The translations under genes and the position numbers were made by a program. The notes under the pieces are model-generated. The model ran no database searches. It was not told where the DNA came from and saw only the letters and a program-made list of their open reading frames with translations. Shown here one piece after another: positions 10,888 to 53,171 of a DNA stretch of 64,000 bases; position 1 is the stretch's first letter; the number at the start of each line of letters is the position of its first letter. The stretch is from Isoetes taiwanensis (taxonomy: Eukaryota > Streptophyta > Lycopodiopsida > Isoetales > Isoetaceae): assembly GCA_021234155.1 (NCBI GenBank), contig JAJEKV010000003.1, positions 32,161,166 to 32,225,165 on the forward strand, in the 5' to 3' direction.

Positions 10888-10958
10888 GAGCCAGCAAAAA
10901 TCGGCTCAGGCATGTCGATTTGTGTAGATCTATAGCTTGCCTAGTTAAGTATAATCTA
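10888..10958 (+). mobile_element. Left fragment of the outer, interrupted LTR retroelement
   Basis: Matches the inner element just after its chromodomain: the block ATCGGCTCAGGCATGTCGAT occurs here and at 21780-21800. The homology is interrupted at 10958 by the inner element and resumes at 24265, where sequence matching 21830-22130 continues. This shows nesting of one family member in another. Upstream of 10888 the expected integrase coding region is missing, so the outer copy is rearranged or non-autonomous. Confidence 0.75.
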
Positions 10959-11015
10959 TGTGACGTTCCAGCATAATATACGCCCCAATACGTATATTAT
11001 ACTGCCACGTCACAC

Positions 11016-11039
11016 GTACATGTCACAAGTGACATGTAC
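11016..11039. promoter_or_regulatory. 24-bp dyad in the 5' LTR, upstream of TATA
   Basis: GTACATGTCAC and its exact inverse GTGACATGTAC separated by AA. The same dyad is at 22718-22741 in the other LTR. It lies ~170 bp upstream of the TATA box, a plausible position for a dimeric transcription-factor site. Function is inferred only. Confidence 0.45.
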
Positions 11040-11206
11040 TTGAGAGTAGGACAACGTTGCACCTAGGAGCTAAAGGTTGCACCTAGGGGGCAACCTTGGA
11101 TGTTGGGTATGTAATTAAACATACACAACAAAAGGTTCCTTGTTCATCCATTTCCAAATGGCTTAAAGCCATTTGCCCATGTGGATGCCCTAACCTAGAT
11201 AGGGTC

Positions 11207-11214
11207 TATATAAG
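11207..11214 (+). promoter_or_regulatory. LTR TATA box
   Basis: TATATAAG in the U3 part of the LTR, repeated at 22909-22916 in the 3' LTR. Transcription would start about 30 bp downstream. Confidence 0.6.
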
Positions 11215-12546
11215 GGCTAAAACCCTAGACCCTAGCTCTCCTTTCACTTTGCCAATTAGGGTTTTCTAGAGCTTCCTTTCCTCTTTCGCATTTAGGGCTT
11301 TCCTGGGCCAATTCGGCCAAGGTAAGGCTCGAAATCGCATTGCCGACTCGAAAAGTCGGTTGCACAACAAAGTTCTTGAGTAATTTTGTCCTCGGCAAGA
11401 TCAGGAGCATGGATGCCTTCCAAGGATCAGGAGCAAGCCAAGGAGCAGGTATCTAGTTGTTCTATTGTGCAAAACCGTCTTTAGGCATGGCAATATGCCG
11501 GTTTAGTATGTTAGATCATCTCTGGAAGTCTTGTAGATCCCTAGATCTGAGACTCTAACGAATGAACCTAACATTGGATGTTAAGTAGATAGATTGATAT
11601 GATTATCTCTGTTCTGTGATATTGTATGTATTCTACTCTGTGATCTCCTTGTTGTAGGAAGGGGGGTAGAGACCTAAAGGCTGTGTAGAAGATGCTCCTA
11701 GCATAGCACCTTAGTTCCCACATAATTGCGGCCCGTGCACAGGAGCCCACCTGGCTGTGGGTGAAGGGGCAAGGCCGGTTGATAAGGAGGAACTTGTCTC
11801 ATCGCGGACTGACCCCTCTGGTAGTAAAGCCTATCGGGGGTCTTTGCTGGCTAGGCTTAATAGCTTGTCACTGCGTGTGGGCAAGGTATGAGCTCGACAC
11901 TCGTGGGGTGGTGGATATGACCTTCCAGTGAGTTCAAGTCGAATACGGGCAGTGGCCCTCTAGCCGCCTGCGATGAGCATGGATACCTCTGGAGGAGAGG
12001 CAGCTCTCTTCCTGCCTCATCGGGGTTGGGGAGATGCAACCCAGCAGTAGTAGCCCCTCTGGCTACTCACCCGGCAGGCTACGGCCAAGTCCCAACACTT
12101 TTCGACCTACTACGCAAAGTGTGCGGGGAGGGGCGGATGGAGTGGACTACCCTAAGCCATGTTCTATGCCAGCCAAATCCATTGCCATGAATTCTGTCTG
12201 CAATGAACTCTGGAGGCCTAGCCGTCAGTCATCCCCCTTGAGTCTGAGCCCTGGGTAGGATCCCTCCTTTGTATTATTGTTATGAAGGTATTGCTGACTC
12301 TGTGATGTTGCTATTGTTATGGTGATTGTGTTGTATATTATTGGTTGTGCTCACGTTTGTTTGTTACGCTTCATGAGAATAGGTCGATCCGATGGAAGGC
12401 GGATGAATGACACATCCACTCTTCCCTTGCTGGCTCGCCCCCCATGGGAGTGGAGTGGTGGATGGCCCTGTCGAGGCGGTTTGCCGGGGGAATGCTCCTC
12501 CCAAAATGCGATGCGGGCATCATTATAAGGAGTAGGGGCGTCACGG

Positions 12547-12558
12547 TGGTATCGGAGC
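12547..12558 (+). promoter_or_regulatory. Primer-binding site, initiator Met tRNA
   Basis: TGGTATCGGAGC directly after the 5' LTR. It matches the usual plant initiator-Met primer site TGGTATCAGAGC except for CAG read as CGG. The same kind of change recurs elsewhere in this element. Confidence 0.85.
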
Positions 12559-12755
12559 ATGATCTTGGCATCCAAGATCGAGGCAGCCATTTCTCCCTTA
12601 GGACTAACAGTAGATTCGAGTCTTGGGGTATAGCCACCCAAGCAAGAGCTTCGAACAATTGGGAAATTCCCAATTTCTGGGTAGATTTTAGTTCCATGAT
12701 AGGTTGCTAGTGAAGTATAACATCTTTTCCAACCTAAATTGCCAAAAAAAATAGG

Positions 12756-12822
12756 CCACCCCTCACAGAGTGCGCCCAGCACCATTCGGTTTCGCCAAAC
12801 ATGGCGCCTTGTGTGAGTGGTT
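12756..12822. repeat. Hairpin repeat copy 1 (of 5)
   Basis: Imperfect inverted repeat with left arm ACCCCTCACAGAGTGCGCC and right arm GGCGCCTTGTGTGAGTGGT, around a short inner segment. It lies in the leader between the PBS and the H3-like ORF. Confidence 0.8.
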
Positions 12823-12962
12823 GACCTCCGTTGACATAGTTAGGTGTCCCAATTAATTAAGATAATGGTGTAGTTTGGCTTATTCCCTTAGTTCTAGATA
12901 GGTTTGTATGTTATAAGACTAAGAACCTCCCTGTAAATTGTAAAATAGCCTTGGAAACAGTC

Positions 12963-13036
12963 GACCCCTCACAGAGTGCGCCCAGCACCATTCGGTTGGT
13001 AATCCAACCTGGCCCAGGCGCACTGTGTGAGTGGTG
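12963..13036. repeat. Hairpin repeat copy 2
   Basis: Same outer arms as copy 1. The inner stem here is GGTTGG/CCAACC. It lies about 115 bp before the TATA box of the H3-like ORF. Confidence 0.8.
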
Positions 13037-13149
13037 GGTGTTTTGGAGTATGGTGAACCCAGATGAATGCCTTGTACCTTCGCTAATGCCCTAGTTTTTT
13101 TTTTTTTCCCCATATGAATTGCAGGTCCCAACCCTAAATCCCACCTCCC

Positions 13150-13157
13150 TATAAATA
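13150..13157 (+). promoter_or_regulatory. TATA box of the H3-like ORF
   Basis: TATAAATA 101 bp before the MARTKQTARK start codon, followed by a leader with TTAGGGTTT, common in plant 5' regions. It suggests internal transcription of the ORF separate from the LTR promoter. Placement is seen; use is inferred. Confidence 0.5.
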
Positions 13158-13196
13158 GAAAATTAGGGTTTCCATTTTACCCCACCTTTCGGGAGA

Positions 13197-13226
13197 ATGG
13201 CTCGCCCAAGAAGGCGATCTTGGTAA
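13197..13226 (+). CDS. Nine-codon upstream ORF
   Basis: ATG to TAA encoding MARPRRRSW, in the same frame as the H3-like start 54 bp downstream and separated by stops. It also begins M-A-R. It could dampen translation of the main ORF or be an alternative start region cut by a mutation. Confidence that it is translated is low. Confidence 0.25.
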   Translation: MARPRRRSW

Positions 13227-13250
13227 AGCTGAAACCCGCCAAACAAAAGC

Positions 13251-14410
13251 ATGGCACGGACAAAACAGACAGCCCGCAAGGTTGTGCCACCTGGTTATGT
13301 GAGCGCCCAGGAGCGAGCCGTCCGACAGAAGGCCAGACGGAGGCAGGTGCACATCGGGGAAGAGGAGGCACCGGTTGAACTAACCCTAACCACGAAGAGC
13401 AGAGCAGTATCGGAGCACCTTGATCGGGAGTGGGACGCGGGCGGGCGGAGCTGCAGAGGGAGATCTTCGGGATAATGAAGAACCTGGAAGTAAAGGAACC
13501 GAAGAAGAAGAAGAGGGAAAGAGAAGAAGGCGAAGAAATCCAAGCATGAAGGCCTAAGGAAAAAGGAAGAGCTAAGAAAGAGGAGGGAGGAGAAGGAACG
13601 TAAGAGGGAAGAAAAGGAGGAAGCGCAAAGAGGAGCGTGGGAGAGGGTGAGAGCAGAGAAGGGTAAGGACCCGAAGTGCCATGAGAAGCCAAGAAGAAGA
13701 AGATACCGGCCGCAAAGCTAGAACTATACAGGAGCCGGATCCCCGAAGCTCCCCATCTTCGCCCCGACCAACCCGAGGAGGGAGCGGAGGACACGAGCCA
13801 GGAGAGACTTCGGCCCTTCAATCCAATATACGGAGGATGAAGACCCCCGGGCTAATGCAACCGCAAATATCCTAAAATGGCCGCCAAGCACCCCAAACAA
13901 AGACTCAAGAAACCAAGGCCGCAGAGGGAGTCCTATATAAAAAACGGGACTTGCAAGACTGAAAGGGGATTAAAGGAGTATACCGCACATGAAAATGCAC
14001 GAAGAATACTCCAAATATTAAGAAGAAAGAGTGAAGACCATTGAGGGAGGTCGGCCAACGAAAGAAGAACACGTGAAGCTGCCCCGGAACCGCCAACCCC
14101 TCCAGAAGAAGCCGATGAAAAGGCCGTGGACTCAAAATTCAGCGAGGGCGCCCAAGAAATTAAGCACTTCAGCAGAGCTATGGCTTCCTCATTCCCGAGC
14201 CCCTTTGCACGCCTAACGAGGGAGATTTTGCGGGGAGTTCGACCCATCCAAACGGGTCACGGACGACATGTTGCTTTCGACTGCAGAGGCGTCGGAGGCA
14301 CATCATTACATTACCGAAGACTCATTGCGTGTGCTCAACACGCTAAGAGAGTGACTTGTATGCCCAAGGATATTAGACTAGCTCAGTTTATTAAGAAGGA
14401 GGGCCCCTGA
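13251..14410 (+). pseudogene. Histone H3-like ORF: H3 tail start, charged linker, H3 fold
   Basis: The ORF opens with MARTKQTARK, identical to canonical H3 residues 1-9 after Met, then diverges (VVPPGYV in place of STGGKAP). Next is a linker of some 290 codons rich in Lys, Arg and Glu (KKKKRERE, KEELRKRREEKERKREEK), likely helical with nuclear-localisation-like clusters. At 14156 an H3 fold begins: EIKHFSRAM (H3 EIRKYQKST), PFARLTREI (PFQRLVREI), CGEFDPSK in loop 1 with the same eight-residue spacing as canonical H3, EASEA in alpha-2 (EAAEA), and CAQHAKRVTCMPKDIRLA, then stop TGA at 14408. The spacing fits canonical H3 rather than CENH3. Frame breaks: one in 13440-13480, others in the linker, an extra base at 14228, and a loss near 14318-14329. 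It may be dead here or partly misread. Function unknown. Confidence 0.88.
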
Positions 14411-14552
14411 ACTATTGTAAATGACCTTTTCTTTGGTATAAGTCTATAATTTTGATAAATAAATAAGTCAAATCGAGTTTAAATAGGGTGTATTGCCGAA
14501 ATTCTACGTTTAGAAATAGCAAAGTTCGGAACAAACCAGGCATTTTGAATCC
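14411..14552. other. Spacer after the H3-like ORF
   Basis: Non-coding, AT-rich. It could hold the 3' end of the H3-like transcript. No clear poly(A) signal was singled out. Confidence 0.3.
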
Positions 14553-14627
14553 TACCCCTCACAGAGTGCGCCCCAACCCATTCGGTTTGCAAACCGATCC
14601 CACCCTGGCGCACTGTGTGGGTGGTTG
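14553..14627. repeat. Hairpin repeat copy 3
   Basis: Left arm ACCCCTCACAGAGTGCGCC, right arm GGCGCACTGTGTGGGTGGT. The inner stem CGGTTTG/CAAACCG differs from copy 2 but stays paired. Confidence 0.82.
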
Positions 14628-14755
14628 AGCATGGTTTGGTGCCAAATCTTGCCTAAATGCAGAAAGTAGGTATATTATTCGACCTAACTCATCCCAGTTA
14701 GTAGGAATTGACCCCTAATCTGTCCAAATTGGCCAACGCCGAGTCAAATGGAGCT

Positions 14756-14831
14756 CCACCCCTCCACGAGTGCGCTTGGACCCATTTGGTTTGGAATCGA
14801 TTCCAGTGAGGCGCCTTTGTGTGAGTGGTGA
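14756..14831. repeat. Hairpin repeat copy 4
   Basis: Most diverged copy: CCACCCCTCCACGAGTGCGC opens it and GCGCCTTTGTGTGAGTGGTG closes it. The inner palindrome is GGAATCGATTCC. Confidence 0.75.
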
Positions 14832-14963
14832 ACCCCAAACTCCACCACAACTTGCCCAAATAAAGGCGAGTTAAGTAAAGGCTCAATCCTATCTATCTCG
14901 ATGAGATACCCGGATTATGTCTTTAGTTCTCTAGTTTAGCATCATTAGTGACCTAAACAGCAG

Positions 14964-15038
14964 CCCCACCCCTCACGAGTGCGCCCCAACCGGTTCGGTT
15001 TGCAAGCCGATCCCACCTGGCGCCTTTGTGTGAGTGGT
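14964..15038. repeat. Hairpin repeat copy 5
   Basis: Left arm ACCCCTCACGAGTGCGCC, right arm GGCGCCTTTGTGTGAGTGGT. Inner stem CGGTTTG/CAAGCCG has one wobble pair. About 160 bp upstream of the next TATA-like box. Confidence 0.8.
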
Positions 15039-15200
15039 CTCGTAGAATTGATCCAAGTTGTCCTTAGGCGAACCAAAATCATTGCTTAGGGACCCTTAGG
15101 AGCATTTCCAAGCTCGGTTAGCCTATAAATCATACCTCTAGACCCCGAGAAAGTCAGGAGAATTGTAAACCTAAAATTTTCCCAAAATTAGGGTTTTGCC

Positions 15201-15208
15201 TATAAAGG
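15201..15208 (+). promoter_or_regulatory. TATA-like box before the second ORF region
   Basis: TATAAAGG preceded by AAAATTAGGGTTTTGCC. The arrangement mirrors that before the H3-like ORF (hairpin repeat, TTAGGGTTT, TATA), suggesting two internal transcription units of similar design. Confidence 0.35.
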
Positions 15209-15402
15209 GAACCAAGTGTCATTTGCACCTTCCAACCTCGCTCTCTGCTCCAAGCCGATTTCCACGATCCTTAGGGCGGCGCACGCATCATGCGTCATCC
15301 CCGGCTCCTCGGTGCTCATGGCCACTTCTTCATTCAAGCGATAAGTGCAGCGCCCACGGACTCTCATGTGGGTGAAGGCGACATCGAATCATCTTCGGTG
15401 TC

Positions 15403-15738
15403 TTAGAGAGGGAACTTGACATTGAGGCCACCATCAACGCCACTCCCTTCTACCGGAACATCATATGCGAGTTCCATGCCAAGATGGGACCCTTCCGGTA
15501 GAACTCCCCACCTTGTGTAGGGTATTTTGCACCTAACACTGCCCTCAAGTCAGCCCTGCAAGATATCCCAAATGTAGATAAGTACTTAGAGAATAAAGCA
15601 GTCCGCCTTCCCAACTACATGTCCATCTCTGTCAATAGGAGGAGGTACTTCTCCTATCTGGCCATTTGTAACCATCTTTCTATCTCTTCGGGGTCAAACC
15701 CAGATAGGGGAACCCTCAGTGCAGCCCTTAGAAGTTGA
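15403..15738 (+). pseudogene. Unknown retroelement protein, N-terminal part
   Basis: Open frame with one internal stop, reading RELDIEATINATPFYRN, EFHAKMGPF, ALQDIPNVDKYLENKAVRLP and SISVNRRRYFSYLAI. The pattern EFHAKM followed by a FAP-type segment vaguely recalls the plant 'putative transposon protein' domain found in front of gag in some gypsy elements; that assignment is weak. It probably continues in another frame into the acidic ORF at 15749. Confidence 0.4.
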
Positions 15739-15748
15739 ACCCATAGCC

Positions 15749-16378
15749 ATGGCCGCAGCAGAGGAGGAACGGATGCGACTCGAGTACGAGCAAGAAGAAG
15801 AGGAGGAGGATGAATATGAATCAGACCCGGAAGACCTGGATCTAGAACAAGAGAGGCAGCAGGCGGAACAGCAGATCCAAAACTTCGAAGAGGGACTGCG
15901 AGCAACAAGAAGAGCCCCACCACTCGGGGAGGGCATTACAAGCTTGACGCCGGTGTTCATAGCAGGCGAGGCATATCTAACCCTTCACGACATCAAGAAT
16001 CTTCCACAGTGCCGCGACAGAGGCCTTAGGGTGGATGAGATTTTACACCTTTTACGACAGCAGGCAGATCTCGACGACTTCATCGATCGAGAAGCTCAGG
16101 ACTTCCCTATCAGCATAAGAGAAGCCAGGACCTTCACCGGCGAGACATCATCAGATATAGAAGCTTACGCAGGCATCAGACAGATGATGGCCGAAACGGA
16201 ATTGCCCTCGGAGGAGGAGTTCATGGCAATTCAGGAACAAATGGGCATCAAAGGCAAGTCCACATCAGCATTATTACCGAGCTCGCCAACACCCATCACG
16301 AGGCGGCATGGAGGCGGTATCAACCTAAGGAGGCTGGTGCACCAAGACTTGAGAGCTAGAGGAGATACCGGTGGATGA
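15749..16378 (+). CDS. Acidic coiled-coil ORF of the retrotransposon, function unknown
   Basis: Open for 210 codons from ATG 15749 (MAAAEEERMRLEYEQ). The first ~50 residues are a highly acidic coiled-coil-like segment; the rest (GITSLTPVFIAGEAYLTL, LHLLRQQADLDDFIDRE) is soluble and helical-looking with no motif I recognise. It lies between the H3-like ORF and gag. Reading-frame remnants continue to ~16830 (DMERLL, SDYSKEEASTN). It may be the C-terminal part of the protein begun at 15403. An acidic protein beside a basic H3-like one could be a histone partner, but that is speculation. Confidence 0.45.
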   Translation: MAAAEEERMRLEYEQEEEEEDEYESDPEDLDLEQERQQAEQQIQNFEEGLRATRRAPPLGEGITSLTPVFIAGEAYLTLHDIKNLPQCRDRGLRVDEILHLLRQQADLDDFIDREAQDFPISIREARTFTGETSSDIEAYAGIRQMMAETELPSEEEFMAIQEQMGIKGKSTSALLPSSPTPITRRHGGGINLRRLVHQDLRARGDTGG

Positions 16379-16839
16379 CTTGGCGGGAAGGCACTGGGGC
16401 AACTTCCTCGTCTGCCGAAGAAAGCGGGGGCATGATAAAGGCGCTCGGATATTACTGCCGTTCTTCTTTGGGCCGGAAGAATAGCGGTCATTCACCGCCA
16501 ATTTAGTAAAGGGTGAAGAAGGGGTCTTTATGCTTATCGCCCTCTCGGGGTTTGGACACCATGCACGATTACCTCCAAACATCGACTATGTTGTCACGAT
16601 CAAGAGAGCGATTGCATTGACCATCTTCGACTTTGCAATCCCTTATAGGCGGCGAGATACAAAGCGATGACGGCCAGCGTATACATCGGATAGGAGAATT
16701 CAAGACATGGAGCGATTACTCTAAGGAGGAAGCGTCAACAAATATTCTCGGGGAACTTAACGGGGTCATTAGAGTGCGGCCCAAGTGAAGAAATTTTGGA
16801 GGACCACCACGATTACCTCAAGAAATTTCAAGAGTAAAA

Positions 16840-17160
16840 GTCTATTAATTTGCATGTAAAAGCTTATTATATATGAATATAATATATATCTCTTTTGTAT
16901 ATAATTGCTCCCTCAAATTGTATAAACAAGTAAAACAACGTAACACACAAAACAAGAACTAATGGTCGGAATGTACTCTAATGTGCATGCGGCTAGAGTA
17001 CCTAGAAACCTTGATGAACACAACGTGACATAACAACAACGTTACCTCGCCAAGGCGCCCAAATGAGGAATTTCTTGATTAGATCGCGGTAACACGGAGG
17101 AGGAGCTATCCAAATCAGATCGACATCCACGACATAAGGGCATTGCTAGCGGGGGCAGCA
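16840..17160. other. AT-rich spacer before gag
   Basis: Contains an AT-rich stretch (TATTATATATGAATATAATATATATC) between the acidic ORF and gag. No coding signal seen. Confidence 0.35.
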
Positions 17161-17170
17161 ATAGGAGGAC

Positions 17171-17810
17171 ATGACTGAATGTGCCCTTGCGGAAACGCTT
17201 GACTGGCGAACAAAGGTAAAAGGAAGAGAAGCGGTAGGAGAAGATCTCCCTAGCTTCCGGGATCCTCAAGCTCCATTTCCGGATACGGATTCCGGTGATG
17301 GAAGAGGTGGAAGAAGAGGCCGAGCTCACGGGCAGGATCCAAACCGTGTGAGGGCAGATCCGCGGTACCGAGTAAGAAAGTTGGCTCAGCCCCAGTAATG
17401 TGTGGAAAGCCGGGGAAGTTAGAGCGTTTTCGGGGGGAAAACAGTCCGAATGGAAGCGAGAGGCATGGCTGGATGAGATGAGTGAGTATGGCAAGCGCCA
17501 ATGGCATGAAAGACAAAAGACAAAGGCGGGGGTAGCAACAGCAAACCTCAAAGGGTGCAGCGAATTTGGTGGAAGGGTATGCCAAAGCACATGGGCGAGG
17601 GACGGTTGCAAATTCAGGAAGTTCGCCAAGGCGTTCAAACATCATTATGTACCAAGAGAACATAAGTGCAACATGATGCAGCAGTTTTATAGGCTGCAAC
17701 AAGGCAACAAATCAGTCCAAAAATACACGGAGGAATTCATGAGACTAAGGCTTTATGTGCCAAAGTTGAGTGAAAAGCATCTGCGGTGGAAGGCTATATT
17801 GAAGGCTTGA
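17171..17810 (+). pseudogene. gag: Gag (capsid) of the chromovirus
   Basis: The Retrotrans_gag pattern is clear at 17590-17780: FAKAFKHHYVPREHK, FYRLQQGNKSVQKYTEEF, MRLRLYVPKLSEK. A Gly/Arg-rich N-terminal part lies at 17171-17398 with a stop before the capsid frame, and the capsid frame closes at 17808, so the gene is split by frameshifts. Product: the structural protein of cytoplasmic virus-like particles. Confidence 0.8.
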
Positions 17811-18168
17811 GCGATGAGATCCGCTTAAGCTTGTAAGGGCAATAAACCCGAAGTGTCGGTCGAGGAGAAGCAAAGGCCATAAGTTTGCAAGGAACAGGTC
17901 CACAAGAGCAGGCATCAAGGCAGCAATATTTCCAGGATAAGGGGAAGAGCACAGGGGGCTATAGCCCAAGGGCGGCAAGCCCAGTAGCTAGCAAAGCGGT
18001 ACAATTCAAATTATGGGAAGCAAGGCAGCATAAAGTAGTGGCAAGCGGGAAAAAAAGCAGGTAAGCTTCAAGGAGCAAGGAGCCAAGTCTAACTACTCCC
18101 AAGCGGTGAGGCAATTTTGCTAGATCCATTCCCAAGGAAAAGAAGCGGGAATGTATAGAGAAGCGGTG

Positions 18169-18209
18169 TGTTTCGGATGCTTCCGGCCGAACATAGGACC
18201 AACAATTGC
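18169..18209 (+). pseudogene. Gag zinc knuckle (CCHC), one base short
   Basis: Cys-Phe-Gly-Cys at 18169-18180, then His-Arg-Thr-Asn-Asn-Cys at 18192-18209. The spacing is C-x2-C, about four residues, H-x4-C, as in nucleocapsid knuckles that bind genomic RNA. Eleven rather than twelve bases separate the second Cys and the His codon, shifting the frame. Confidence 0.65.
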
Positions 18210-18387
18210 CCCCGATTATGAATGCGGCATTGGCGAGCGCTGGGATGGGAGACACCATCGGACCTTGAGGCGATGGCGAAGCGCGGGATTACATCCATGG
18301 TGAGTGTCACATCTTTTGCGACTATTGATCTGAGGAAATGAGAAAGTCGGTATAAGGTAATCTCAGCGAAGGAAAAAGCCAAGAAAT

Positions 18388-18440
18388 CCTTTATAGTATT
18401 GATAGACTCTGGCAGGCGGTCATAATTTTGCATCCCCTAG
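18388..18440 (+). pseudogene. Retropepsin active-site region
   Basis: FIVLIDSG followed by a frame-damaged segment ending HNFAS. Asp-Ser-Gly (codons 18405-18413) is the aspartic-protease signature in this position of plant gypsy pol. Confidence 0.65.
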
Positions 18441-18819
18441 GATGGTAAGCATGTTGAAGTTAAAGCCGTTAAAGTCCAAGCCCGGGCGGTGGTGTTAGCC
18501 AATGGAGCAATTAGGCATCTGGCCGAGGGAAGAGAATAAACTTCAATGTAGACTTGCCGGTGTTAATGTTGCATTGGGCCGGAAGTCATGAATATAGGCA
18601 AGTATGATCTCATTATTGGAATGGAATATCTTGGACCAGCGGGGAGCAATCATCGATTGTGGGAAGCGTAAGGTGACCTTAACAACGCCAGAGGGCAAAG
18701 TCATCGAAATCCGCGGTAAAAAGTAACCCCAATCATGCAATGCATGAGTAGCGAAAAATTGCTTAAGTGCATAAGAAAGCAGCGGTGGCCTATCTCCTTA
18801 AGCTTGAGCTCCAAGATCG

Positions 18820-20260
18820 AGGAGCGGGGAGAAATAAAGAGATCAAAGAATCTAGCAAGCTTCCGAGGCCAATAGCAAAGTTGATCGAGGAATTTCACGA
18901 CTTGTTCCTCGATGAGATTAAGCGCAACGCCCCTATAGAGGAGTCGAGTGTGAAATAGCACTTGAACACTGGGGCCGAAGCCTACAAGCAAGGCACCTTA
19001 TAGGATGTCAACCGAGGAGTTGACATGAGTTAAAAAAGCAGTTGCAAGAATTGCTAGACCTAGGGTTCATAAGACCTAGTGTCTCCCGTTCGAACCCCTA
19101 TTCTCTTTGTGAAGAAGAAGGATGGCAGCCTTAGGATGTGCATTGATTCTGCTTGATTAAATAAGCACACCATCAAAAATAAGTATGCCTTGCCTAGGTC
19201 GGATGACTTAATGGATCGATTTGCGGGGAGCAAAGATCTTCTCAAAATAGATCTCGGATCGAGGATATCACCAGATTAGGATCAAGGAGGAAGACATTCA
19301 TAAGGCAAATAAGGAGGACAAGATATGGGCACTATGAGTTCCACAGTTATGCCCTTTGGACTGTCTAATGCACCAACAACATTCATGAGGTTAATGAGCG
19401 GCGTCTTCCATGCGAATTTCTAGATTCCTTCATCATAGTCTTCTTCGACGATATCTTGGTTTCTGACAAGTCACGTGGAGGAGCACGCCCAACACTTGAG
19501 GAAGGTGCTTGAAAAGTTAAGAAGGCATCAACTCTTTTTGGCGGTTATCGAAGTGCCGCCAGAAGCGGAAAGAGTGGAGTACTTGGGGCACGTGATCACA
19601 GCCAGAAGGCATTTCCACGGCACCTCGCGAAGATAGAAGGCGTGATCGGCTGGCCGGCACCAAAGAATACGATGAAGTCGGGGAGCTTCCTAGGGCTAGC
19701 AGGCTATTATAGAAGATTTGTGAAGAATTTTGCCAAGGTAAGCGCCATTAACGGATCTCACAAAAAGGTGGGAAGATAAAAGATTGGGCAGCCCATCGGC
19801 AAAACAAGGCCCGAAAGCATTTGAGACATGAAGGAAGCTTTGACGGCGGCGCAAGATGTGGTCTTGCCGGATCCGACCAAAGATAAGCTCGTGGCAACAG
19901 ATGCTAGCGAGGATAGCGGCGGCGGGATCCTCATGTGAGGGAGGAAAGAGTAGTGGCCTATGATTCTAAGAAGTTGAGCGGCCGAACAGCGCTACCAACG
20001 CATGATCGGGGAGCTCCGGCTATAGTAAGGGCTTTAAGAATTTGGAGGCATTATTTATTGGGAAGAAAATTCAGTTAGACACGGATCATCAAAGCCTCAA
20101 TATATATTTCGCTTGGCCAGCTCCTTAATTTGAGGCAAAGGAGATGGATGGAATTCTTGGAAGAATATGACTTTGAGATAAGTTACAAGCCGGGGAAGCT
20201 CAATGTGGTTGCGGATGCCCTTTCCGAGGAAGCCATTGGCAACCAGAATTCATTGTAACG
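18820..20260 (+). pseudogene. pol: Reverse transcriptase and RNase H of the chromovirus
   Basis: RT landmarks in order: KLIEEFHDLF, PILFVKKKDGSLRMCID (19095-19150), HTIKNKYALPRSDDLMDRF, MPFGLSNAPTTFMRLM (19345-19395), the catalytic FFDD (codons 19441-19452), EEHAQHLRKVLEKL, VEYLGHVI. The RNase H part follows: VLPDPTKDKLVATDAS (Asp codon 19900-19902), a degenerate GGILM, AAEQRY, and NVVADALS near 20205. At least six frame breaks, several at expected CAG/CTG codons. It would copy element RNA to DNA; broken here as written. Confidence 0.88.
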
Positions 20261-20499
20261 CCATATCAACACTTGTAAGTGAGTTTGGCAAGAAGATTGA
20301 GGAAACATTGCCGCGGACCTGGACTTCAAGGAAGTTTGGGGTGAGCCTTTCCAAAGAGGCGGGGACCGACAAGGAAAGGGAGATGTTCGGGCACTACAAG
20401 AAGGAAGGGAACTTGCTATATTATAAAACAAATTGTGTGTACCAAAATCTTCGCAGTTAGAAAGCTTATTTTGAATGATACACACAATAGTCCCATAGC

Positions 20500-21808
20500 A
20501 GGGCATCACGGGGGTTCATGAAGATATATTTCAAGATTAGAAGCGATTATTATTGGCCCGGCATGAAGAAGGAAATAGCAAGATATATTAGAGAGTGCGG
20601 ATATGCCCGTGAGACAAAGGCGAACGACTCAGGATCAGGTGCCTTGGAACCATTGCCCGTGCCAAATGCTAAGTGGGAGGTGATAAGTATGGATTTTATT
20701 ACGGGACTCCCAAGAGCGCAAGGGGCAAAGATGCCTTGATGGTGGTAGTAGATAAGTTGTCAAAGATGGCACACTTTGTGCCGTGCGAGGACAACAGATC
20801 TGACATTAGACCACGACCAACCTATTTGTTAAGGAGATTTTTTAGGCTCCATGGCATGCCAAGGGAGATAATCTCGGATAGAGACTCCAAGTTTATGAGT
20901 GCCTTTTGGCGGGACCTATTCACCACCATCAGGGCGAAGCTTTTCGATGAGCGCGGCATATCATCCCCAAGCGGATGGTCGGGCGGAGAGGACCAGCGGG
21001 ATCATCGAAGATATGTTAAGAAGCTATGTATGGAACAAGCAATCCAAGTGGGATGATTTCATCTACCTAGTAGAGTTTTGCCAACAACACCAAGCGAGGA
21101 GTCATCGCAGATGAGTCCTTTTATGATTAATTACGGGTATCGGTGTCTTACCCCGGATACTTGGCACAACCACTGTGTCCAAGGTGGAAGTCTCCAGCCA
21201 GATGCTTTGAAATGCAAGACTTGGTGGAGGAAGTGAGAGGATATCTCCTTGCAGCAAAGAAGCGGAGGCGAAAAGCATCGTGAGACAAGCATAGGGCGGT
21301 AAGAGAATTTGAAGTGGGAGACAAAGTGTGGTTGAAGATCAAAGTCAAGCAGGCCAAGCTCCGCATCGGCAATTGCAAGAAGCTTGCTCCAAGATGGGCT
21401 GGACCCTTCAGAATAGAGAAGAGAGTAGGTAACCAATCCTACAAGTTGGACTTGCCAGCACATCTTAAGATACATAAGGTTTTCCACGTAAGTTTGCTAA
21501 AGAGGCACACCCCAAACCCCGAGGAAATATTGGAGACAAATGAGTTTTTAGAAATGACGGACGAGCATATTGAAATCGTTCCGGAAGTCCTTCTTAATAG
21601 ATCTTATAAGAAGACAAGAAGGTCAAAATTCCTCCAATATCTTGTGAAGTGGAAGCACTTACCAGTGGAAGACGCTACGTGGGTACTTGAGTCAGATCTC
21701 AAGAAACAGTACCCCGAGTTTATGGAGCAATCCAAGGGTCGGCTCGTCACCGAAGTAGTCGACATCAGCAACCAAGAAATCGGCTCAGGCATGTCGATTT
21801 GGGTTTAG
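20500..21808 (+). pseudogene. Integrase with GPF/Y module and C-terminal chromodomain
   Basis: Zinc-binding region remnant at 20500-20620 (HHG, YYWPGMKKEIARYI). Catalytic triad visible: Asp in MDFITGLP (20692), Asp in IISDRDSKF (20877), Glu in GRAERTSG (20986). The GPF/Y region is KLAPRWAGPFRIEKRVG to HKVFHVSLLKRH. The chromodomain occupies 21578-21727 (VPEVLLNRS, FLQYLVKWKHLPVEDATWVLE), with aromatic Trp in VKWK and TWVLE. The last ORF (21314-21808) is intact; frame breaks lie near 20740, 20940 and 21090. Chromodomains of this family steer integration by binding methylated H3. Confidence 0.9.
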
Positions 21809-22378
21809 AGTTAAGCATGTGTAGCTAAGGCTAATCTACGCATGTAGCCTATGCTAGGCATGGGTTGCATGCGTTGTTACCGATGATGAGACCACTACGG
21901 TGCTCTCTAGGGCGTGGTGTAATGTCAATGTAGGCATGACCGCGTTTCCGCTTTGTTTGAGTGGAAGGTAGATTAGAAGTCTACTATACGTCCCCGCGGA
22001 AGTAGGCGACCTCGAGAAGAAAGGAGGTCATTGAGAGATGCATTGATAGGAAAAGCACCTTTAGCCCCATATATGTTTTGATAGGAGGAATCTATCCTTC
22101 ACGCCCCATATCACGGGAAGGATATCCTCCTGTTGAGCAACTAGAGGTGTAGGCATGGCGGCATATAGGCATATAAGTATTTGTCTCTTGACGAGGATGG
22201 GAGAAACATAATCTTCCTATCTTAGAAGAGATATGCCTTGCATCCATATAATTGTATTTAATGGGTGGTTCCCTTACAACCAACCCTTATAATAATAATT
22301 AAATATGTACTAGCGTGGCGTACATCCTACTTGAGGCAACTAGAAGAACCGAGCGGCAGGAGGGTAACGCTACAAGAA

Positions 22379-22414
22379 CTCACAACGCATAGTTTTGCCA
22401 TAATGTGTTGTGAG
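22379..22414. promoter_or_regulatory. 3' hairpin of the inner element
   Basis: CTCACAACGCAT pairs with ATGTGTTGTGAG across a 12-nt loop. Equivalent hairpins with a changed but still paired stem occur in the outer element at 24781-24815 and 25063-25097. Confidence 0.55.
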
Positions 22415-22647
22415 GAGGCGACGGGAAGTTTTTAGTTAAAACCTTAAAGCTATAATTGATGTCAATTTTGTTTATAGTCAATTATGAAGTAGAGGACGGA
22501 AGAGCCTCTCACCATAGTACAATTACAGTAAACTATAAATATTACTTGAGGTGATTAATATAATATGGATATGTAAGTGTTGTAATTGCAGGATATCACG
22601 GTACCCAAGGTGGGGGAGGAGGCGTGATGCCGGGACGACATCAAGTC

Positions 22648-22660
22648 AAGGTGGGGAGAA
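22648..22660 (+). promoter_or_regulatory. Polypurine tract of the inner element
   Basis: AAGGTGGGGAGAA directly before the 3' LTR start TGTGGCG. The same tract precedes the outer 3' LTR at 25384-25396. Confidence 0.85.
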
Positions 22661-24264
22661 TGTGGCGTTCAAAGCATAATATAGCCCTATCACATTATAT
22701 TATACTACCCGTCCTGCGTACATGTCACAAGTGACATGTACTTGAGAGTAGGACAACGTTGCACCTAGGAGCTAAAGGTTGCACCTAGGGGGCAACCTTG
22801 GATGTTGGGTATGTAATTAAACATACACAACAAAAGGTTCCTTGTTCATCCATTTCCAAATGGCTTAAAGCCATTTGCCCATGTGGATGCCCTAACCTAG
22901 ATAGGATCTATATAAGGGCTAAAACCCTAGACCCTAGCTCTCCTTTCACTTTGCCAATTAGGGTTTTCTAGAGCTTCCTTTCCTCTTTCGCATTTAGGGC
23001 TTTCACGGGCCAATTCGGCCAAGGTAAGGCTTCGAAATCGCATTGCCGAACTCGAAAAAAGTCGGATTTGCACAACAAGTTCTTTGAGTAGCAGGTGTCC
23101 TCGGCAAGATCGGGGAGCATGGACGCCTTCCAAGGATCAGGAGCAAGCCAAGGAGCAGGTATCTAGTTGTTACATTGTGCAAAACCGTCTTTAGGCATGG
23201 CAATATATGCGGTTTAGTATGTTAGATCATCTCGGAAGTCTTGTAGATCCCTAGATCTCGAGACTCTAACGAATGAACCTAACATTGGATGTTAAGTAGA
23301 TAGATTGATATGATTCTCTATCTACGTTACGTGATATTGTATGTATTCTACTCTGTGATCTCCTTGTTGTGGGAAGGGGGTAGAGACCTAAAAAGGCATG
23401 TAGAAGATGCTCCTAGCATAGCACCTTAGTTCCCACATAATTGCGGCCCGTGCGGGGAGCCCACACATTTTGTGGGTGAAGGGGCAAGGCGGTTGATAAG
23501 GAGGAACTTGTCTCATCGTGGGGTGACCCCTCACGGTAGTAAAGCCTATCGGGGGTCTTTGCTGGCTAGGCTTAATAGCTTGTCACTGCGTGTGGGCAAG
23601 GTATGAGCTCGACACTCGTGGGGTGGTGGATATGACCTTCCAGTGAGTTCAAGTCGAATACGGGCAGTGGCCCTCTAGCCGCCTGCGATGAGCATGGATA
23701 CCTCTGGAGGAGAGGCAGCTCTCTTCCTGCCTCATCGGGGTTGGGGAGATGCAACCCAGCAGTAGTAGCCCCTCTGGCTACTCACCCGGCAGGCTACGGC
23801 CAAGTCCCAACACTTTTCAGCCTACTCTGCAAAGTGTGCATGGGAGGGGCGGATGGAGTGGACTACCCTAAGCCATGTTCTATGCCAGCCAAATCCATTG
23901 CCATGAATTCTGTCTGCAATGAACTCTGGAGGCCTAGCCGTCAGTCATCCCCCTTGAGTCTGAGCCCTGGGTAGGATCCCTCCTTTGTATTATTGTTATG
24001 AAGGTATTGCTGACTCTGTGATGTTGCTATTGTTATGGTGATTGTGTTGTATATTATTGGTTGTGCTCACGTTTGTTTGTTACGCTTCCGCAGATAGGTC
24101 GATCCGATGGAAGACGGATGAATGACACATCCACTCTTCCCTTGCTGGCTCTGCCCCCCATGGGAGTGGAGTCAGGTGGATGGCCCCTGTCAGGCAGCTG
24201 CCAGGGGGAATGCTCCTCCTTCGAGTACGATGCGGGCATCGTATAAGGAGTAGGGGACGTCACA
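22661..24264 (+). repeat. 3' LTR of the inner retrotransposon
   Basis: Starts TGTGGCGTTC and ends GACGTCACA, followed by ATCTA. It contains the same dyad (22718-22741) and TATA box (22909-22916) as the 5' LTR. It keeps CAG/CTG at several sites where the 5' LTR reads CGG or ACG, and the reverse at others. Confidence 0.95.
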
Positions 24265-25396
24265 ATCTACGCATGCAACCTATGAGGTAAGGGTTGCATG
24301 CGTTGTTACCGATGATGAGATTACTACGGTGATCTCTAGGACGTGGTGTAATGTCAATGTAGGCATGACCGCGGTTCCGCTTGGAAAGTCTACTTCTGTC
24401 CCACGGAAGTAGATGACCTCGAGAGAAAGGAGGTCATTGAGGAATGCATTGATAGGAATAGCACCTCTAGCCCCATATATGCTTTGATAGGAGGAATCTG
24501 GCCTTCACGCCCCATATACGGGAAGGACCTATCCTCCACGTTGGGCAACTAAAGGTGTAGGCATGAGCGGCATACAGGCATTATAGGGCGCTGCCTCCTC
24601 GGCCACGATGGAAGAATCATCCTCTTCCTACGCCGGGAGATTAGCCATGCATTCATGTAGATAGGTGGGGTGGTCACCATATAACCAAAAGTTTAATTAA
24701 TATAAATGGTAATAACGTAGTGTTGACTGCTTGAGCCAATAAGAAGCTACGGAGGGCCACGAGGTCGAACTCACTTAAGACTTGCAACACAAATTTTGTT
24801 ATAACGTGTTGCAAGGGATGAAGAGTACCTTAGAAGTGTAAATTTTGTATGAAATTGATAAACTTTGATAAACTTAAATGTTGTATTAAGTAAGGTTAAT
24901 AATTACCTTGCGTGGATTAAGTTATGAAATCATAAGTTAATTGGATAATGAAATAGTACAGTAATGTCTTAAACATTACCTTAGAGTAATTCTAATAATT
25001 AAGATAGTAAGTATGTAATTATAGATATTGTAAAATTAATACAGGATTTTAAGGTGCGAAGACTTGCAACACAAATTTTGTTGGAATGTGTTGCAAGGAA
25101 TGAAAAGAGCACCTTAAATAATAATTGTATATGAAAGTGTTAAATTGTGATAAACTAAATGATGTGATAACGGAGACTAATAAGTACCTTGTTTTAATAG
25201 AAGTTACGATTTGACAAGTTATTTGATAATGTAATGGCGTAATAATGAATTAAAAATATTACCTTAAGGTAATCTTAATAAATGTGTAAGTATTATAGTA
25301 GTATATCGTATGCATCAGGTTGATTGCGGGTTAGGAAGATTCAAGGTGGGGAGACCCACGATCTGCGCGGACGACATCATTTCAAGGTGGGGAGAA
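24265..25396 (+). mobile_element. Right interior of the outer retroelement, with duplicated hairpin
   Basis: Continues the homology interrupted at 10958: 24265-24560 matches 21830-22130. Two ~280-bp direct repeats (from 24779 and 25061) each start GACTTGCAACACAAATTTTG and contain the hairpin CTTGCAACAC/GTGTTGCAAG (24781-24815, 25063-25097). A polypurine tract, AAGGTGGGGAGAA, closes the segment at 25384-25396. No coding sequence. Confidence 0.75.
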
Positions 25397-26906
25397 TGTG
25401 GCGTTCGATGACGATATCTACGGTCTCAAGGCATTATACCGTCTTTGCGGAAATCACACGCATACCGCGCGATCCAATCGGCGTAATGCGCCCGGCGTGT
25501 ACCCAAGCAAAGGTCGCCCTAGGGGGCAACTTGCAATGGTGCGCACACTTAGCAATGCGCGCACTTTTAGACCTTTAACCCATTAAAGGTAGACCAAGGG
25601 TCATGGAAACCCTAAACCTAGCGATAGCCTACATAAGGCACCAAACCCTAACTTTCCCTTTTAAGCCCACAGACCTTAGGAGCTCGATTCGGCGCTGAGG
25701 AGTCAATTCCAACTCCACGATCTGTCAAGTGCGCCCCGGCTTGTCGGATCGTCCTCCGACTTGCATTTGAAGCGAGCGAGAGACATGGACACCTTTGGAT
25801 CGAGAGGAGTGAACCCGGGGATGGGTATTTAGTCGATTGAATAGCCTAAACCTTATTCCGACCTTGAACCCGGTGGGTTTAGCCTATTAAATCACCCCTA
25901 GTAGCCAGCGGATCCGAGATTGACTCTAACTAAAGAACCTAACTCTATGTATGATATAGATTAGTTCTTATTCTTTAGTTCTATGATGATGTGATGGGCC
26001 GGATGAATTACGTGAACTCCTTTGTATTGGGAAGGGGGTAGAGACTTGAAGCTTAGTAGATGATGCTCCTAGATAGTCCCTCTTAGTGCATTACTAGATT
26101 TCGGCTGTGCACAAGAACCACACACTGGTTGTGGGTGAAGGGGGGCGGGCCCGGCTAAGGAGGAGGTTCGTGTTACGACTCTTGAGCGATCCCTCCGGTG
26201 TGTAAGGCCTACTGGGGGGATCATTGTGACTAGGTCTAATGGCTTGCCAGCTGCGTGTGGGCAAGGCATGGGCTCGACACTCGTGGGGTGGTGGATATGA
26301 CCTTCTGTGAGTTCAAGTCGAATAAGGCGGTGGCCCTCTAGTCACCTTGAGTCAGCATGTAGATCTCTCGGAGGGAGTGATCCCTACACGCCCCATCGGG
26401 GCTGGGGAGATGTAACCCCGGTAGAGCGTAGCCCCTTTGGCTATGCACCCGTGGCTCTGATCCAGGTCCCAACCGTTTCGGCGTACTACGCAAAGTGTGC
26501 AGGGAGGGCGGATGGAGTGGACAACCCTAAGCCATGTTCTTATGCCCGATAAATCCATTGCCATGAATTACATGCGCAATGAACTCACGGAGACCCAAGC
26601 CGTCAGTCATCCCTTTGAGTCTGAGCCTTGGGTAGGATTTCCCATATGTATTGTGCTGATCTTTGTCTATGTAGATGTGATGGACCACCCTTCGAGGTGG
26701 ATATATGATGTTATGTTACTGACGTGTATGTTTACGCTTCCGCAGCTAGGTAGGCCCTGAGGAAGACGGGATAAAATGACCCCTTCACTCTTCCCACTGT
26801 GGACTCTAGGCGGTCACAGGGCCCTGTATCAGTGTGGAGCTGGTGCGGGGGATGAACTCCTGTTTGTACACGGTGCGGGCACCGTATACGAGTAGGGGAC
26901 GTCACA
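25397..26906 (+). repeat. 3' LTR of the outer retroelement
   Basis: Begins TGTGGCGTTC after a polypurine tract and ends GACGTCACA, as in the inner LTRs. Homology is patchy but clear, for example GGTAGAGAC at 26036 onward, TGGGTGAAGGGG near 26132, GGCAAGGCATGGGCTCGACAC and ACGTCACA. It is much more diverged from the inner LTRs than they are from each other, so it is an older insertion. The matching 5' LTR is not in the window or not recognisable. Confidence 0.85.
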
Positions 26907-44510: not shown

Positions 44511-46045
44511 TCAAGCATAAGAGTGCACATCCAAATACTCCTCAAAAATCAATCGCCTCTTGCGAGGGGCAAGTGAAGAACAATGATACGACTTTACAAT
44601 GTAACCTTGAGCTTCTTGGAGAACACGATTATCTGCCACATCCAGACCTTTGAAGATTACCAATCTTCGTCTTTTCCAGATAGTCCAAAGCAACCATCCT
44701 GCTGCTAGATGAAAAGCTTGGCCTTGTAACTCTGTCCAGGTACTTGGGTAAATTGCCAAAAGCAGTTGACTTGTTAGTGAAACCTGAAAAAGGGAAAACA
44801 ACCAGTCCCATACCTGTCTAAGGTGTTCACACATGAAAAAGCAATGCTCAATGGTCTCAGATCCACGCTTGCATACTGGACACTGATTTGATATTCTAGG
44901 GTTAAACTTATGGACAAGCACATTAACCCGTAGACACCTATGAAGAATCTGCCACCAAAGAACTGCCACTTTAGGATGAAGTAGCTTGTCCCATGCCCAA
45001 GACCACACCTTCTGCCATTGAAGAGGAGGAAGTTGAAGAGACCACTTATTAGACGGAGGAAGAATATCAGTATGAAGCAACAACCGATACATAGAGTTCA
45101 CAAGTTTGCACTCCTTAATTTCTTCATGACAAACCCATACCAAAATAGCTTCTTGGTGTGGCAGAATAGGCTGTAGAAAATCAGCAACTTTTTGCCAAAG
45201 AACTCTATCCCATCGCCCCAATAGAAACTTTAAGCGAAAAGCCTCCCATGTCAAGAATCGGCTCGAGTCATACCATGCTGCAATAGTTAAGATTCCAAAG
45301 CACTTTTCCAACGTCTTTGAGTCAGCGGGTGCATTGTAAAGCAAAGTGGTTGATTGTCTACCGAGGGATCCACCAACAAGGTGCGATCAAGCGTACACAA
45401 GCAGTTGGACTGATGTGAAATAAAGTTTTGATTGTGTGGGAATCTAACAATCCCTTTAAGAATGGAGAAGCATTATGATAAGGCCGCAACTCATAAAATA
45501 AACTCCATGGAAAAACGAGGTTTGAGTGTGACTTTACCAAAAGGGATCTGATGGGTAAGAGCACATGCAATAAGCCGTAACCCGGAGAATCATCCTTACC
45601 TACGAGAAGCCGCCAAATGAATTTTGAGATCATAACCTTACTACGCAAATGGAAATCTGTCATGCCCAAACCTCCAGCCAGACTTAGGTTTTATACACTT
45701 AGACCATGCAACCTTCACCACTACCCCTGCTTCATTTCCACCCCAGATAAAGTTTCTAACAACACCCACAATCTCCTGAAACTTTGAGTGGGAAGCAAGA
45801 ATGGCAAAAGCCATATAGACATGTGTGTTGCTTAAGACATGCTTAGCAACTCTTACCCTTCCAGGCATAGATAGCTTAGCCGTATCCCACCAAAAAAGGT
45901 GCCTCCGCAACCCCTCGATTATAACATCCCAAGCATCAGAAGTTGAAACATGAATACCCACTGGGATACCAAGAAGCTTGGTTGCCTTCCCATGAGGCAA
46001 CACCTTCCAGGGGTAAGCAAGAACACATGGTGGGACTTCATCATC
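44511..46045 (-). mobile_element. LINE ORF2 C-terminal fragment
   Basis: Reading leftward: YPWKVLPHGKATKLLGIPVG, HLFWWDTAKLSMPGRVRVAK and FIWGG (RT thumb and connection region), GMTDFHLRSKVMISKFIWRL, then KVAVLWWQILHRCLRVNVLV, QCPVCKRGSETIEHCFFMCE (zf-RVT) and WLLWTIWKRRRLVIF. Frames change at about 45650 and 45350, so it is broken. Related to but distinct from the fragment at 34741-35597. The upstream RT catalytic part is missing and no poly(A) or duplication was found. Confidence 0.9.
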
Positions 46046-53166: not shown

Positions 53167-53171
53167 CTTAA

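What the first reader, a model, noticed from the sequence alone, without database searches (positions are those of the whole stretch)
13251..14410. A retrotransposon that carries a histone H3-derived ORF
Between the primer site and gag of a complete Ty3/gypsy element lies an ORF region with the H3 tail start (MARTKQTARK) and, 290-odd codons later, an H3 histone fold (EIKHFSRAM, PFARLTREI, EASEA, CAQHAKRVTCMPKDIRLA). Seen directly: both ends and their order. Known: these are hallmark H3 segments. Inferred: capture of a host H3 sequence that gained a long internal linker. I know of no described plant retroelement with this cargo but could not search.
Basis: partly seen in the sequence, partly recalled or inferred. 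Interest (0 to 1): 0.97.

Follow-up and report, generated by a model that had tools for sequence, protein, structure and literature searches.

The report
Retrotransposons carrying a captured histone H3
Jumping genes in this plant genome carry their own version of histone H3, a protein that packages the cell's DNA, and selection has kept it protein-coding in many copies, so these parasites may act on their host's chromatin with a stolen chromatin part.

Summary
Confirmed and extended. The window holds an LTR retrotransposon (10959-24264; TSD, Met-type PBS, gag, integrase, chromodomain). Between PBS and gag lies a decayed ORF with the H3 start MARTKQTARK (13251) and an H3 fold (to 14407; PF00125 E 1.2e-6). 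A pattern for MARTKQTARK matches 1,051 genome places (reversed control 0), one for the H3 signature HAKRVT 4,979 (control 19). Of 40 tail places opened, 39 have an H3 fold about 1 kb downstream; four fetched copies are uninterrupted ORFs of 388-394 aa: tail, charged linker, H3 fold. A second architecture (20 of 20 loci opened) fuses an orphan N-domain to a nearly canonical H3 core (80 of 92 residues in one) behind the same LTR end and PBS (15 of 20). The fold is under purifying selection (dN/dS about 0.035 and 0.074, samples favouring well-kept copies). Fungal hAT DNA transposons with captured H3 are in print; I found no retroelement with one. Function is inferred: pairing with host H4 to enter or mimic chromatin. 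Against a K9-centred model: R8-K9 is kept in 1,051 of 1,888 tails, and by eye the chromodomain lacks two of three cage residues.

The parts
10954..10958 (.). Target-site duplication ATCTA, left copy
   Evidence: read directly; right copy at 24265-24269
10959..12545 (+). 5' LTR (TGTGACG...CGTCACG); end set to within 1-2 bases
   Evidence: 94.06% identical to the 3' LTR over 1616 columns, 55 mismatches, 35 gap openings
12547..12558 (+). Primer binding site TGGTATCGGAGC, one base from TGGTATCAGAGC (initiator Met tRNA type, recalled)
   Evidence: TGGTATCAGAGC behind a like LTR end in 15 of 20 tail-less loci
13251..13280 (+). ORF1 start: histone H3 tail residues MARTKQTARK
   Evidence: 1,051 genome places match a pattern for this peptide
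13281..13985 (+). ORF1 linker, charged, decayed; window subfamily also in L029-L033, L047, L057
   Evidence: residues 11-290 of P0122 had no relatives at E <= 0.001
13986..14407 (+). ORF1 C-terminal part with H3 histone fold, two frame changes inside; stop at 14408-14410
   Evidence: PF00125 E 1.2e-6; P0122 tblastn E 2.5e-12 and 4e-12
15502..16640 (+). ORF2 remnant (acidic stretch at about 15750-15900); unknown protein
   Evidence: open pieces 15502-15735 and 15590-16375; 16509-16640 matches ORF2 of L024 and L028, 34-36%; no Pfam family above cut-off in the two open pieces
17376..17807 (+). gag piece
   Evidence: PF03732 E 8e-11
17394..19671 (+). gag to reverse transcriptase region, decayed
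   Evidence: tblastn of the L014 gag-pol frame, E 7.7e-61
19684..21207 (+). RNase H and integrase region, decayed
   Evidence: tblastn of L014 E 1e-81; PF17921 5.4e-9 in 20491-20736
21284..21805 (+). Integrase C-terminus with chromodomain (about 21581-21730)
   Evidence: PF24626 2.7e-22, PF00385 1.2e-10
22661..24264 (+). 3' LTR (TGTGGCG...CGTCACA), behind a purine-rich run GGTGGGGAGA
24265..24269 (.). Target-site duplication ATCTA, right copy

Best explanation
Shown: a chromodomain-bearing Ty3/gypsy lineage of this plant carries, as an ORF between primer site and gag in many copies, a protein made from a histone H3. One form keeps the H3 N-terminus (ARTKQTAR, often K9) ahead of a long charged linker and a diverged H3 fold; the other has an orphan N-domain instead of the tail and keeps an almost canonical H3 core. 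Selection has kept the fold protein-coding over long divergence. Inferred: the protein pairs with host H4 through the kept fold and is taken up by chaperones and chromatin, as the single H4 of bracoviruses is. There the long N-terminal part, and in one form the tail with its K4, recruits or diverts chromatin factors so that the element's DNA is less well silenced or better packaged and integrated.
For: H3 fold: P0122 E 2.4e-21 and 2e-19 to solved H3.3; P0001 E 2.7e-42. Tail and fold in one uninterrupted frame in 4 fetched copies. One element lineage: capsid, protease, RT and RNase H downstream (L025), chromodomain pol in L014 by eye, gag-pol stretches shared with the window in 5 of 7 loci compared, window-like LTR end plus PBS in 15 of 20 tail-less loci. 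Selection, NG86: tail-less core median dN/dS 0.035 (69 of 105 pairs usable) against 0.128 for its N-domain and 0.217 for its linker; tail-bearing core 0.074 (26 of 105 pairs; 15 of 18 cores kept). Positions for DNA and H3-H3' contact (roles recalled) in the 15 tail-bearing cores: R83 15/15, R116 15/15, T118 14 of 14 with a letter, H113 13/15, D123 14 of 14 with a letter (the end of L043 is out of frame). Tail: K4 in 1,888 of 1,902 places, host genes included, while its codons vary synonymously. Precedent: bracovirus H4 enters host nucleosomes (PMC9145170, passages).
Against: No expression, protein, localisation or chromatin data. The tail-bearing fold has lost R63 (P in 15/15), most of R128/R129 and half of K122, so a canonical nucleosome is doubtful for it. 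837 of 1,888 tails lack the R8-K9 pair, and of 10 such places in a contig-order sample only 2 have the exact H3 signature downstream. S10 is gone in 40 of 40 opened copies. Most opened tail-bearing copies are broken (3 of 40 with a frame over 340 aa). Two of the four uninterrupted copies have a changed tail residue. Tail-less loci were picked for high PF00125 score and long open frame, which lowers their dN/dS. The K4 count is conditioned on the other residues being intact.
Confidence: 0.5

Rival explanations
1. Histone mimicry as a decoy: the protein need not enter nucleosomes. The H3 tail peptide (and a fold that binds H4 or chaperones) soaks up H3K4/K9 writers, readers or chaperones and so weakens silencing.
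For: K4 in 1,888 of 1,902 places; S10, whose phosphorylation ejects K9me readers (recalled), absent in 40 of 40 opened copies; tail mimicry by influenza NS1 and others is known (PMC10208167, passages).
Against: The tail-less architecture does without it; the R8-K9 pair is not universal; a decoy needs no H3 fold under such constraint.
Confidence: 0.2
2. Packaging: the basic, histone-bearing protein condenses the element's RNA or cDNA in particles or shields it on the way to the nucleus, as virus-coded histones do for some DNA viruses.
For: Lysine/arginine-rich stretch after the tail; place next to gag; DNA-contact positions largely kept.
Against: Near-canonical core constraint points to host partners; no fusion to gag seen in the loci read.
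Confidence: 0.12
3. Integration targeting: the H3 part tethers the pre-integration complex to H4-containing chromatin or to the element's own chromodomain integrase.
For: The integrase carries a chromodomain.
Against: By eye the chromodomain keeps only the W of the aromatic cage, as group II plant chromodomains usually do (PMC3350952, passages); R8-K9 not universal.
Confidence: 0.1
4. Passive passenger: a histone sequence was transduced and amplified with no function.
For: Most opened tail-bearing copies are broken; in a fungus a hAT transposon amplified captured H3 to 784 copies, all inactivated (PMC6710886, abstract and passages); transduced genes in plant LTR elements are usually in one or a few copies (PMC7264820, first part read).
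Against: dN/dS 0.035-0.074 with synonymous change near saturation; four uninterrupted copies fetched and more listed; two architectures both keep the fold.
Confidence: 0.05
5. Not an element gene at all: host H3 gene clusters, retrogenes or gene-prediction artefacts.
For: Canonical H3 genes exist too (L001-L008).
Against: Window copy lies between LTRs with TSD and PBS; opened copies are fusions, not 136-aa H3s; tail-to-signature distance is 1.0-1.27 kb in 17 of 17 paired cases, whereas a 136-aa H3 gives about 0.34 kb.
Confidence: 0.01

Closest known systems
Histone H3 transduplicated by fungal hAT DNA transposons: Pyrenophora tritici-repentis (PMC3538342) and Pseudocercospora fijiensis and relatives (PMC6710886); abstract and passages seen
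   Same: a transposable element captured H3 and amplified it (26 copies in the one, 784 in the other); captured as transcript; in P. tritici-repentis most copies look functional
   Different: there a DNA transposon of a fungus; here an LTR retrotransposon of a plant, H3 fused to orphan domains or split from its tail by a long linker, several subfamilies, and selection on the element-borne fold over saturating synonymous divergence
Ty3/gypsy elements with additional ORFs (aORFs), e.g. orchid Gypsy elements with an m6A demethylase domain (PMC9289625, passages)
   Same: LTR retrotransposon of a plant that captured a host domain and kept it through family diversification
   Different: cargo is a core histone, upstream of gag, in two fusion architectures
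Single viral histones, e.g. bracovirus H4, H3s of large DNA viruses (PMC9145170, passages)
   Same: parasite-borne core histone with high identity to the host fold
   Different: those named in the passages I read are DNA viruses or virus-derived; here a reverse-transcribing element
Viral H3-tail mimics, e.g. influenza NS1 ARSK motif (PMC10208167, passages)
   Same: H3 N-terminal motif on a parasite protein
   Different: here the H3 start of up to 10 residues at the true N-terminus, joined to an H3 fold
Plant chromoviruses with group II chromodomains (PMC3350952, passages)
   Same: integrase chromodomain lacking most cage residues
   Different: no histone is mentioned as cargo in the passages I read

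Membership tests
Ty3/gypsy LTR retrotransposon | paired LTRs, TSD, PBS | tested here: met
   window; paired LTRs not tested for other copies
Ty3/gypsy LTR retrotransposon | gag and RT-RNaseH before integrase | tested here: met
   gag before IN in window; capsid, protease, RT, RNaseH in order in L025
Chromovirus | chromodomain at integrase C-terminus | tested here: met
   PF00385 1.2e-10 behind PF24626 in the window; L014 by eye
Chromovirus | complete aromatic cage for H3K9me (not required of plant group II) | tested here: not met
   by eye 1 of 3 cage residues; group II pattern per PMC3350952
Histone H3 | H3 fold | tested here: met
   PF00125 E 2.7e-42 and 2.4e-21, H3.3 best solved match for P0122
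Histone H3 | N-terminal tail ARTKQTARKS | tested here: inconclusive
   ARTKQTAR(K) in tail-bearing form, S10 in 0 of 40 opened; tail absent in 15 of 15 tail-less ORFs aligned
Histone H3 | incorporation into nucleosomes | not testable with these tools
   needs reconstitution
hAT transduplication of H3 (fungi) | hAT transposase and terminal inverted repeats | tested here: not met
   LTRs, gag and pol instead
Ogre/Tat-type elements with an ORF upstream of gag (recalled) | non-chromovirus pol | tested here: not met
   chromodomain present
Viral histones of DNA viruses | borne by a DNA virus | tested here: not met
   LTR retroelement; six peptide patterns of P0122 found nothing in viral contigs

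The most novel reading that the evidence does not exclude
A reverse-transcribing element family makes a histone variant of its own, loaded into host chromatin with host H4 (nearly canonical core form) and advertising a K4-type H3 tail or an orphan domain, so that a plant genome has been seeded with thousands of genes for a parasite-controlled nucleosome.
Probability: 0.3. Interest if true: 0.97.

Novelty: new variant of a known kind. Interest (0 to 1): 0.88.

Why it matters
Core histones are known cargo of some DNA viruses and of fungal hAT DNA transposons; I found no report of one in a retroelement (paper searches; listings of titles and abstract starts). Plants silence transposons through histone H3 marks, so an element with its own selected H3 makes an arms race on the histone itself testable. 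That H3 was also captured twice or more in fungi hints that it is a favoured cargo. Two natural architectures separate the tail question from the fold question, and uninterrupted copies allow biochemistry on natural proteins.

Tried and rejected
ORF2 as a second histone: its C-terminal stretch looked H2A-like by eye; hhalign to H2A, H2B and H4 scored no better than one shuffled version of each; Pfam gave nothing above cut-off for the three ORF2s scanned and the PDB profile search nothing; dropped. Structure: ORF1 of L025 folded at mean pLDDT 56, N-domain blocks 53-88, histone part mostly under 50, no PDB match below E 1.1; ORF2 model useless, pLDDT 33. Protein search with whole P0001 listed 120 of 4,516 hits, matched over 21-43% of the query, by the Pfam column through the histone part (the two read are multi-H3 predictions); residues 1-310 of P0001 and 11-290 of P0122 found nothing at E <= 0.001, with sensitivity limited to shared 5-residue words. 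A K9-centred model was set back. One capture or two: one branch (99/97) parts the 16 tail-bearing cores from tail-less and host rows, L046 being a long branch; tail-less (77/25) and host (77/65) are not firmly parted; undecided. An organism guess was searched once in the papers and led nowhere.

Dropped rows: L046, L048 and L050 (L050 misframed) were removed from the 18 cores, whose run ended in a script error after three of six comparisons (tail-bearing median 0.090 with those rows in); L043, L048, L050, L054 and L067 were left out and L069-L071 added.

Full report
What is in the window. The finding lies in an LTR retrotransposon at 10959-24264, flanked by the 5-base duplication ATCTA. The LTRs are 94.06% identical over 1616 columns with 55 mismatches and 35 gap openings. 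A Met-type primer site follows the 5' LTR. Downstream are gag (PF03732, 8e-11), an integrase zinc-binding domain (PF17921), a Tf2-type SH3 domain (PF24626, 2.7e-22) and a chromodomain (PF00385, 1.2e-10). Between primer site and gag, at 13251, an ATG opens MARTKQTARK, the first residues of H3; about 0.9 kb on is an H3 fold ending at 14407. The open piece 14045-14407 reaches PF00125 at 1.2e-6 and H3 chains of the PDB at 6.5e-6. Stops and frame changes break this copy.

The tail-bearing family. A degenerate pattern for MARTKQTARK (it also admits Ser at the two Arg positions, and host H3 genes are among the matches) finds 516 + 535 = 1,051 places in the 1.66-Gb genome and none when read backwards. 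I opened 40, chosen by eye from the first places listed and leaving out those that coincide with canonical H3 genes. In 39 of 40 (L041, the source of one query, included) an H3-fold match at E < 1e-3 begins 0.8-1.2 kb from the tail's start on the same strand; L053 has none. After K9 all 40 leave H3: position 10 is P 20, V 9, R 6, Y 3, A 1, F 1, never S. Several subfamilies are seen; the window's is L029-L033, L047 and the less decayed L057. Frames over 340 aa are open in 3 of 40. L041 is one open frame of 388 aa (P0122): tail, lysine/arginine-rich stretch, acidic and proline-rich linker, H3 fold at 286-383 with PF00125 E 2.4e-21 and H3.3 E 2e-19. A genome search with P0122 scored 106 of 35,087 first-look candidates and gave 111 matches; many rows run full length without a stop at 71-100% identity. 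Three fetched (L069-L071) are uninterrupted, 394 aa; the tail is MARTKQTARK in L069, has P for R8 in L070 and R for T3 in L071.

A check free of my picking. Lists of tails and of the H3 signature HAKRVT are complete for contigs C1-C79. Of 33 tails there, 17 have the signature 1,011-1,274 bases downstream on the same strand: 15 of 23 that are also in the K9 list, 2 of 10 that are not. Of 99 listed signatures, 17 have such a tail upstream; the others may be tail-less forms, copies with a decayed tail, or host genes. Genome-wide the signature pattern (Ser admitted for Arg) has 4,979 places against 19 for the reversed control.

The tail-less family. A PF00125 search scored 150 of 8,705 first-look candidates; the 15 best cover profile positions 2-122, and the 8 of them read are canonical H3 genes. 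Of the other 135 I took 20 with open frames of 337-494 aa, in 10-kb pieces: 20 of 20 hold an ORF with a nearly canonical H3 core at or near its end. Fifteen have a clear start and were aligned: an N-domain of about 210 residues, a charged or glutamine-rich linker, a basic stretch, then H3 from about residue 38 on. The core of L025 shares 80 of 92 aligned residues with a host H3, that of L028 82 of 94, that of tail-bearing L041 44 of 84. Residues 1-310 of L025's protein found no relatives at E <= 0.001 in a 5.8-billion-protein search limited to shared 5-residue words. Downstream of ORF1 come ORF2 (A1) and ORF3 (A2) of unknown kind, then gag-pol with capsid, protease, RT and RNase H (L025); in L014 gag-pol follows ORF1 directly and ends in a chromodomain by eye. 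In 15 of 20 loci the primer site TGGTATCAGAGC follows an LTR end, usually GGAGCGTCACA, close to the window's GGGGCGTCACG; in 5 it was not found there. Of seven loci compared with the window, five share gag-pol stretches (L014, L018, L025, L028, L021), two share a piece of ORF2 (L024, L028), five share the fold (L014, L018, L025, L009, L021) and L024 its last 26 residues. I conclude that window and tail-less elements belong to one lineage.

Selection. NG86 on 15 tail-less ORFs: core median dN/dS 0.035 (69 of 105 pairs usable), N-domain 0.128 (38), basic stretch 0.121 (57), linker 0.217 (51). For 15 tail-bearing cores, chosen by tail but required to be a single stop-free frame of over 80 residues: 0.074 (26 of 105 pairs usable, highest 0.135); four host H3 genes give 0.007 (4 of 6 pairs). 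Between L041, L069, L070 and L071 the core gives 0.037-0.179 and the linker 0.142-0.393. Both samples favour well-kept copies, so the values are low estimates; but median pS of 0.58 and 0.85 at the core with pN of 0.04 and 0.19 is not what a passenger would show.

Which H3 features are kept. In 15 tail-bearing cores R83 and R116 are 15/15, V117, T118, C110 and D123 14 of 14 with a letter, H113 13/15; R63 is P in 15/15, R128 is R in 3, R129 in 1, K122 is Q in 7. The tail-less cores keep nearly all positions tabulated, but vary at 64, 86-87, 102, 104-105 and 107. Contact roles are recalled. So the tail-less core could plausibly sit in a nucleosome; the tail-bearing fold looks able to pair with H4 but less able to wrap DNA normally. 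In the tail, K4 is kept in 1,888 of 1,902 places where the other residues to position 8 match, or 1,051 of 1,060 when K9 is also fixed, while the R8-K9 pair is kept in 1,051 of 1,888. The third bases vary widely.

How it may work. The evidence shows a captured, selected H3. What it does is inference. I think entry into, or mimicry of, host chromatin most likely, since the constraint falls on the fold that pairs with H4, and since bracovirus H4 sets a precedent (PMC9145170, passages). Tail mimicry, packaging and integration targeting are rivals. A scheme in which the element's chromodomain reads a K9 mark on its own H3 is weakened: K9 is not universal and the chromodomain has one of three cage residues by eye, as group II plant chromodomains usually do (PMC3350952, passages).

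Literature. Seven searches on retroelements and histones listed no title or abstract start that reports a retroelement with a core histone; two searches returned no paper. One search did list the nearest prior art: H3 captured by hAT DNA transposons in fungi. In Pyrenophora tritici-repentis 26 copies, 23 seemingly coding, with ESTs (PMC3538342, passages; PMC6710886); in Pseudocercospora fijiensis 784 copies, all but the original inactivated by RIP, with like events in five more genomes (PMC6710886, abstract and passages). So H3 capture by transposons is not new as such; an LTR element, the fusions and the selection on the element's own fold are what I did not find. The review on additional ORFs in plant LTR elements counts zero uses of histone (first of three parts read). 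The orchid case is the nearest domain capture in Ty3/gypsy (PMC9289625, passages). The library lacks most subscription journals and preprints, so absence is provisional.

Limits.

Noticed in passing
window 12758-12829, 12964-13035, 14554-14625, 14758-14829, 14967-15038: Five copies of a 72-base repeat around ORF1 whose ends (CCCCTCACAGAGTGCGCC and GGCGCACTGTGTGAGTGG in the reference copy) look inverted to each other by eye; they could form hairpins in the RNA leader and between ORF1 and ORF2.
   Followed up: no
window 10889-10958 and 24264-26906: The element seems to sit inside an older related element: the left flank matches 21767-21838, the right flank 21833-22175, and a diverged LTR-like stretch follows at 26012-26906.
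   Followed up: partly
L018:4575-6020, L011, L025, L021, L019, L024 (ORF2); L021, L024, L026, L028 (ORF3): Two further unknown ORFs between the H3 ORF and gag, conserved among copies; no Pfam family above cut-off in the three ORF2s scanned, ORF3 not scanned.
   Followed up: partly
G000, one search list (for example C4:86499-86524 minus): A frequent tail type ATGGCAAGAACTAAGCAAACCGCAAG that is not in the K9 list; those in contigs C1-C79 have no exact HAKRVT within 1.6 kb downstream; what follows it is unknown.
   Followed up: no
window 51372-53249 minus: Long open frame of 626 aa with a partial HSP70 match (PF00012, 1.3e-9).
   Followed up: no
window 44514-45386 minus: Open piece with a zinc-binding domain of a reverse transcriptase (PF13966, 7.7e-13), probably a LINE remnant.
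   Followed up: no
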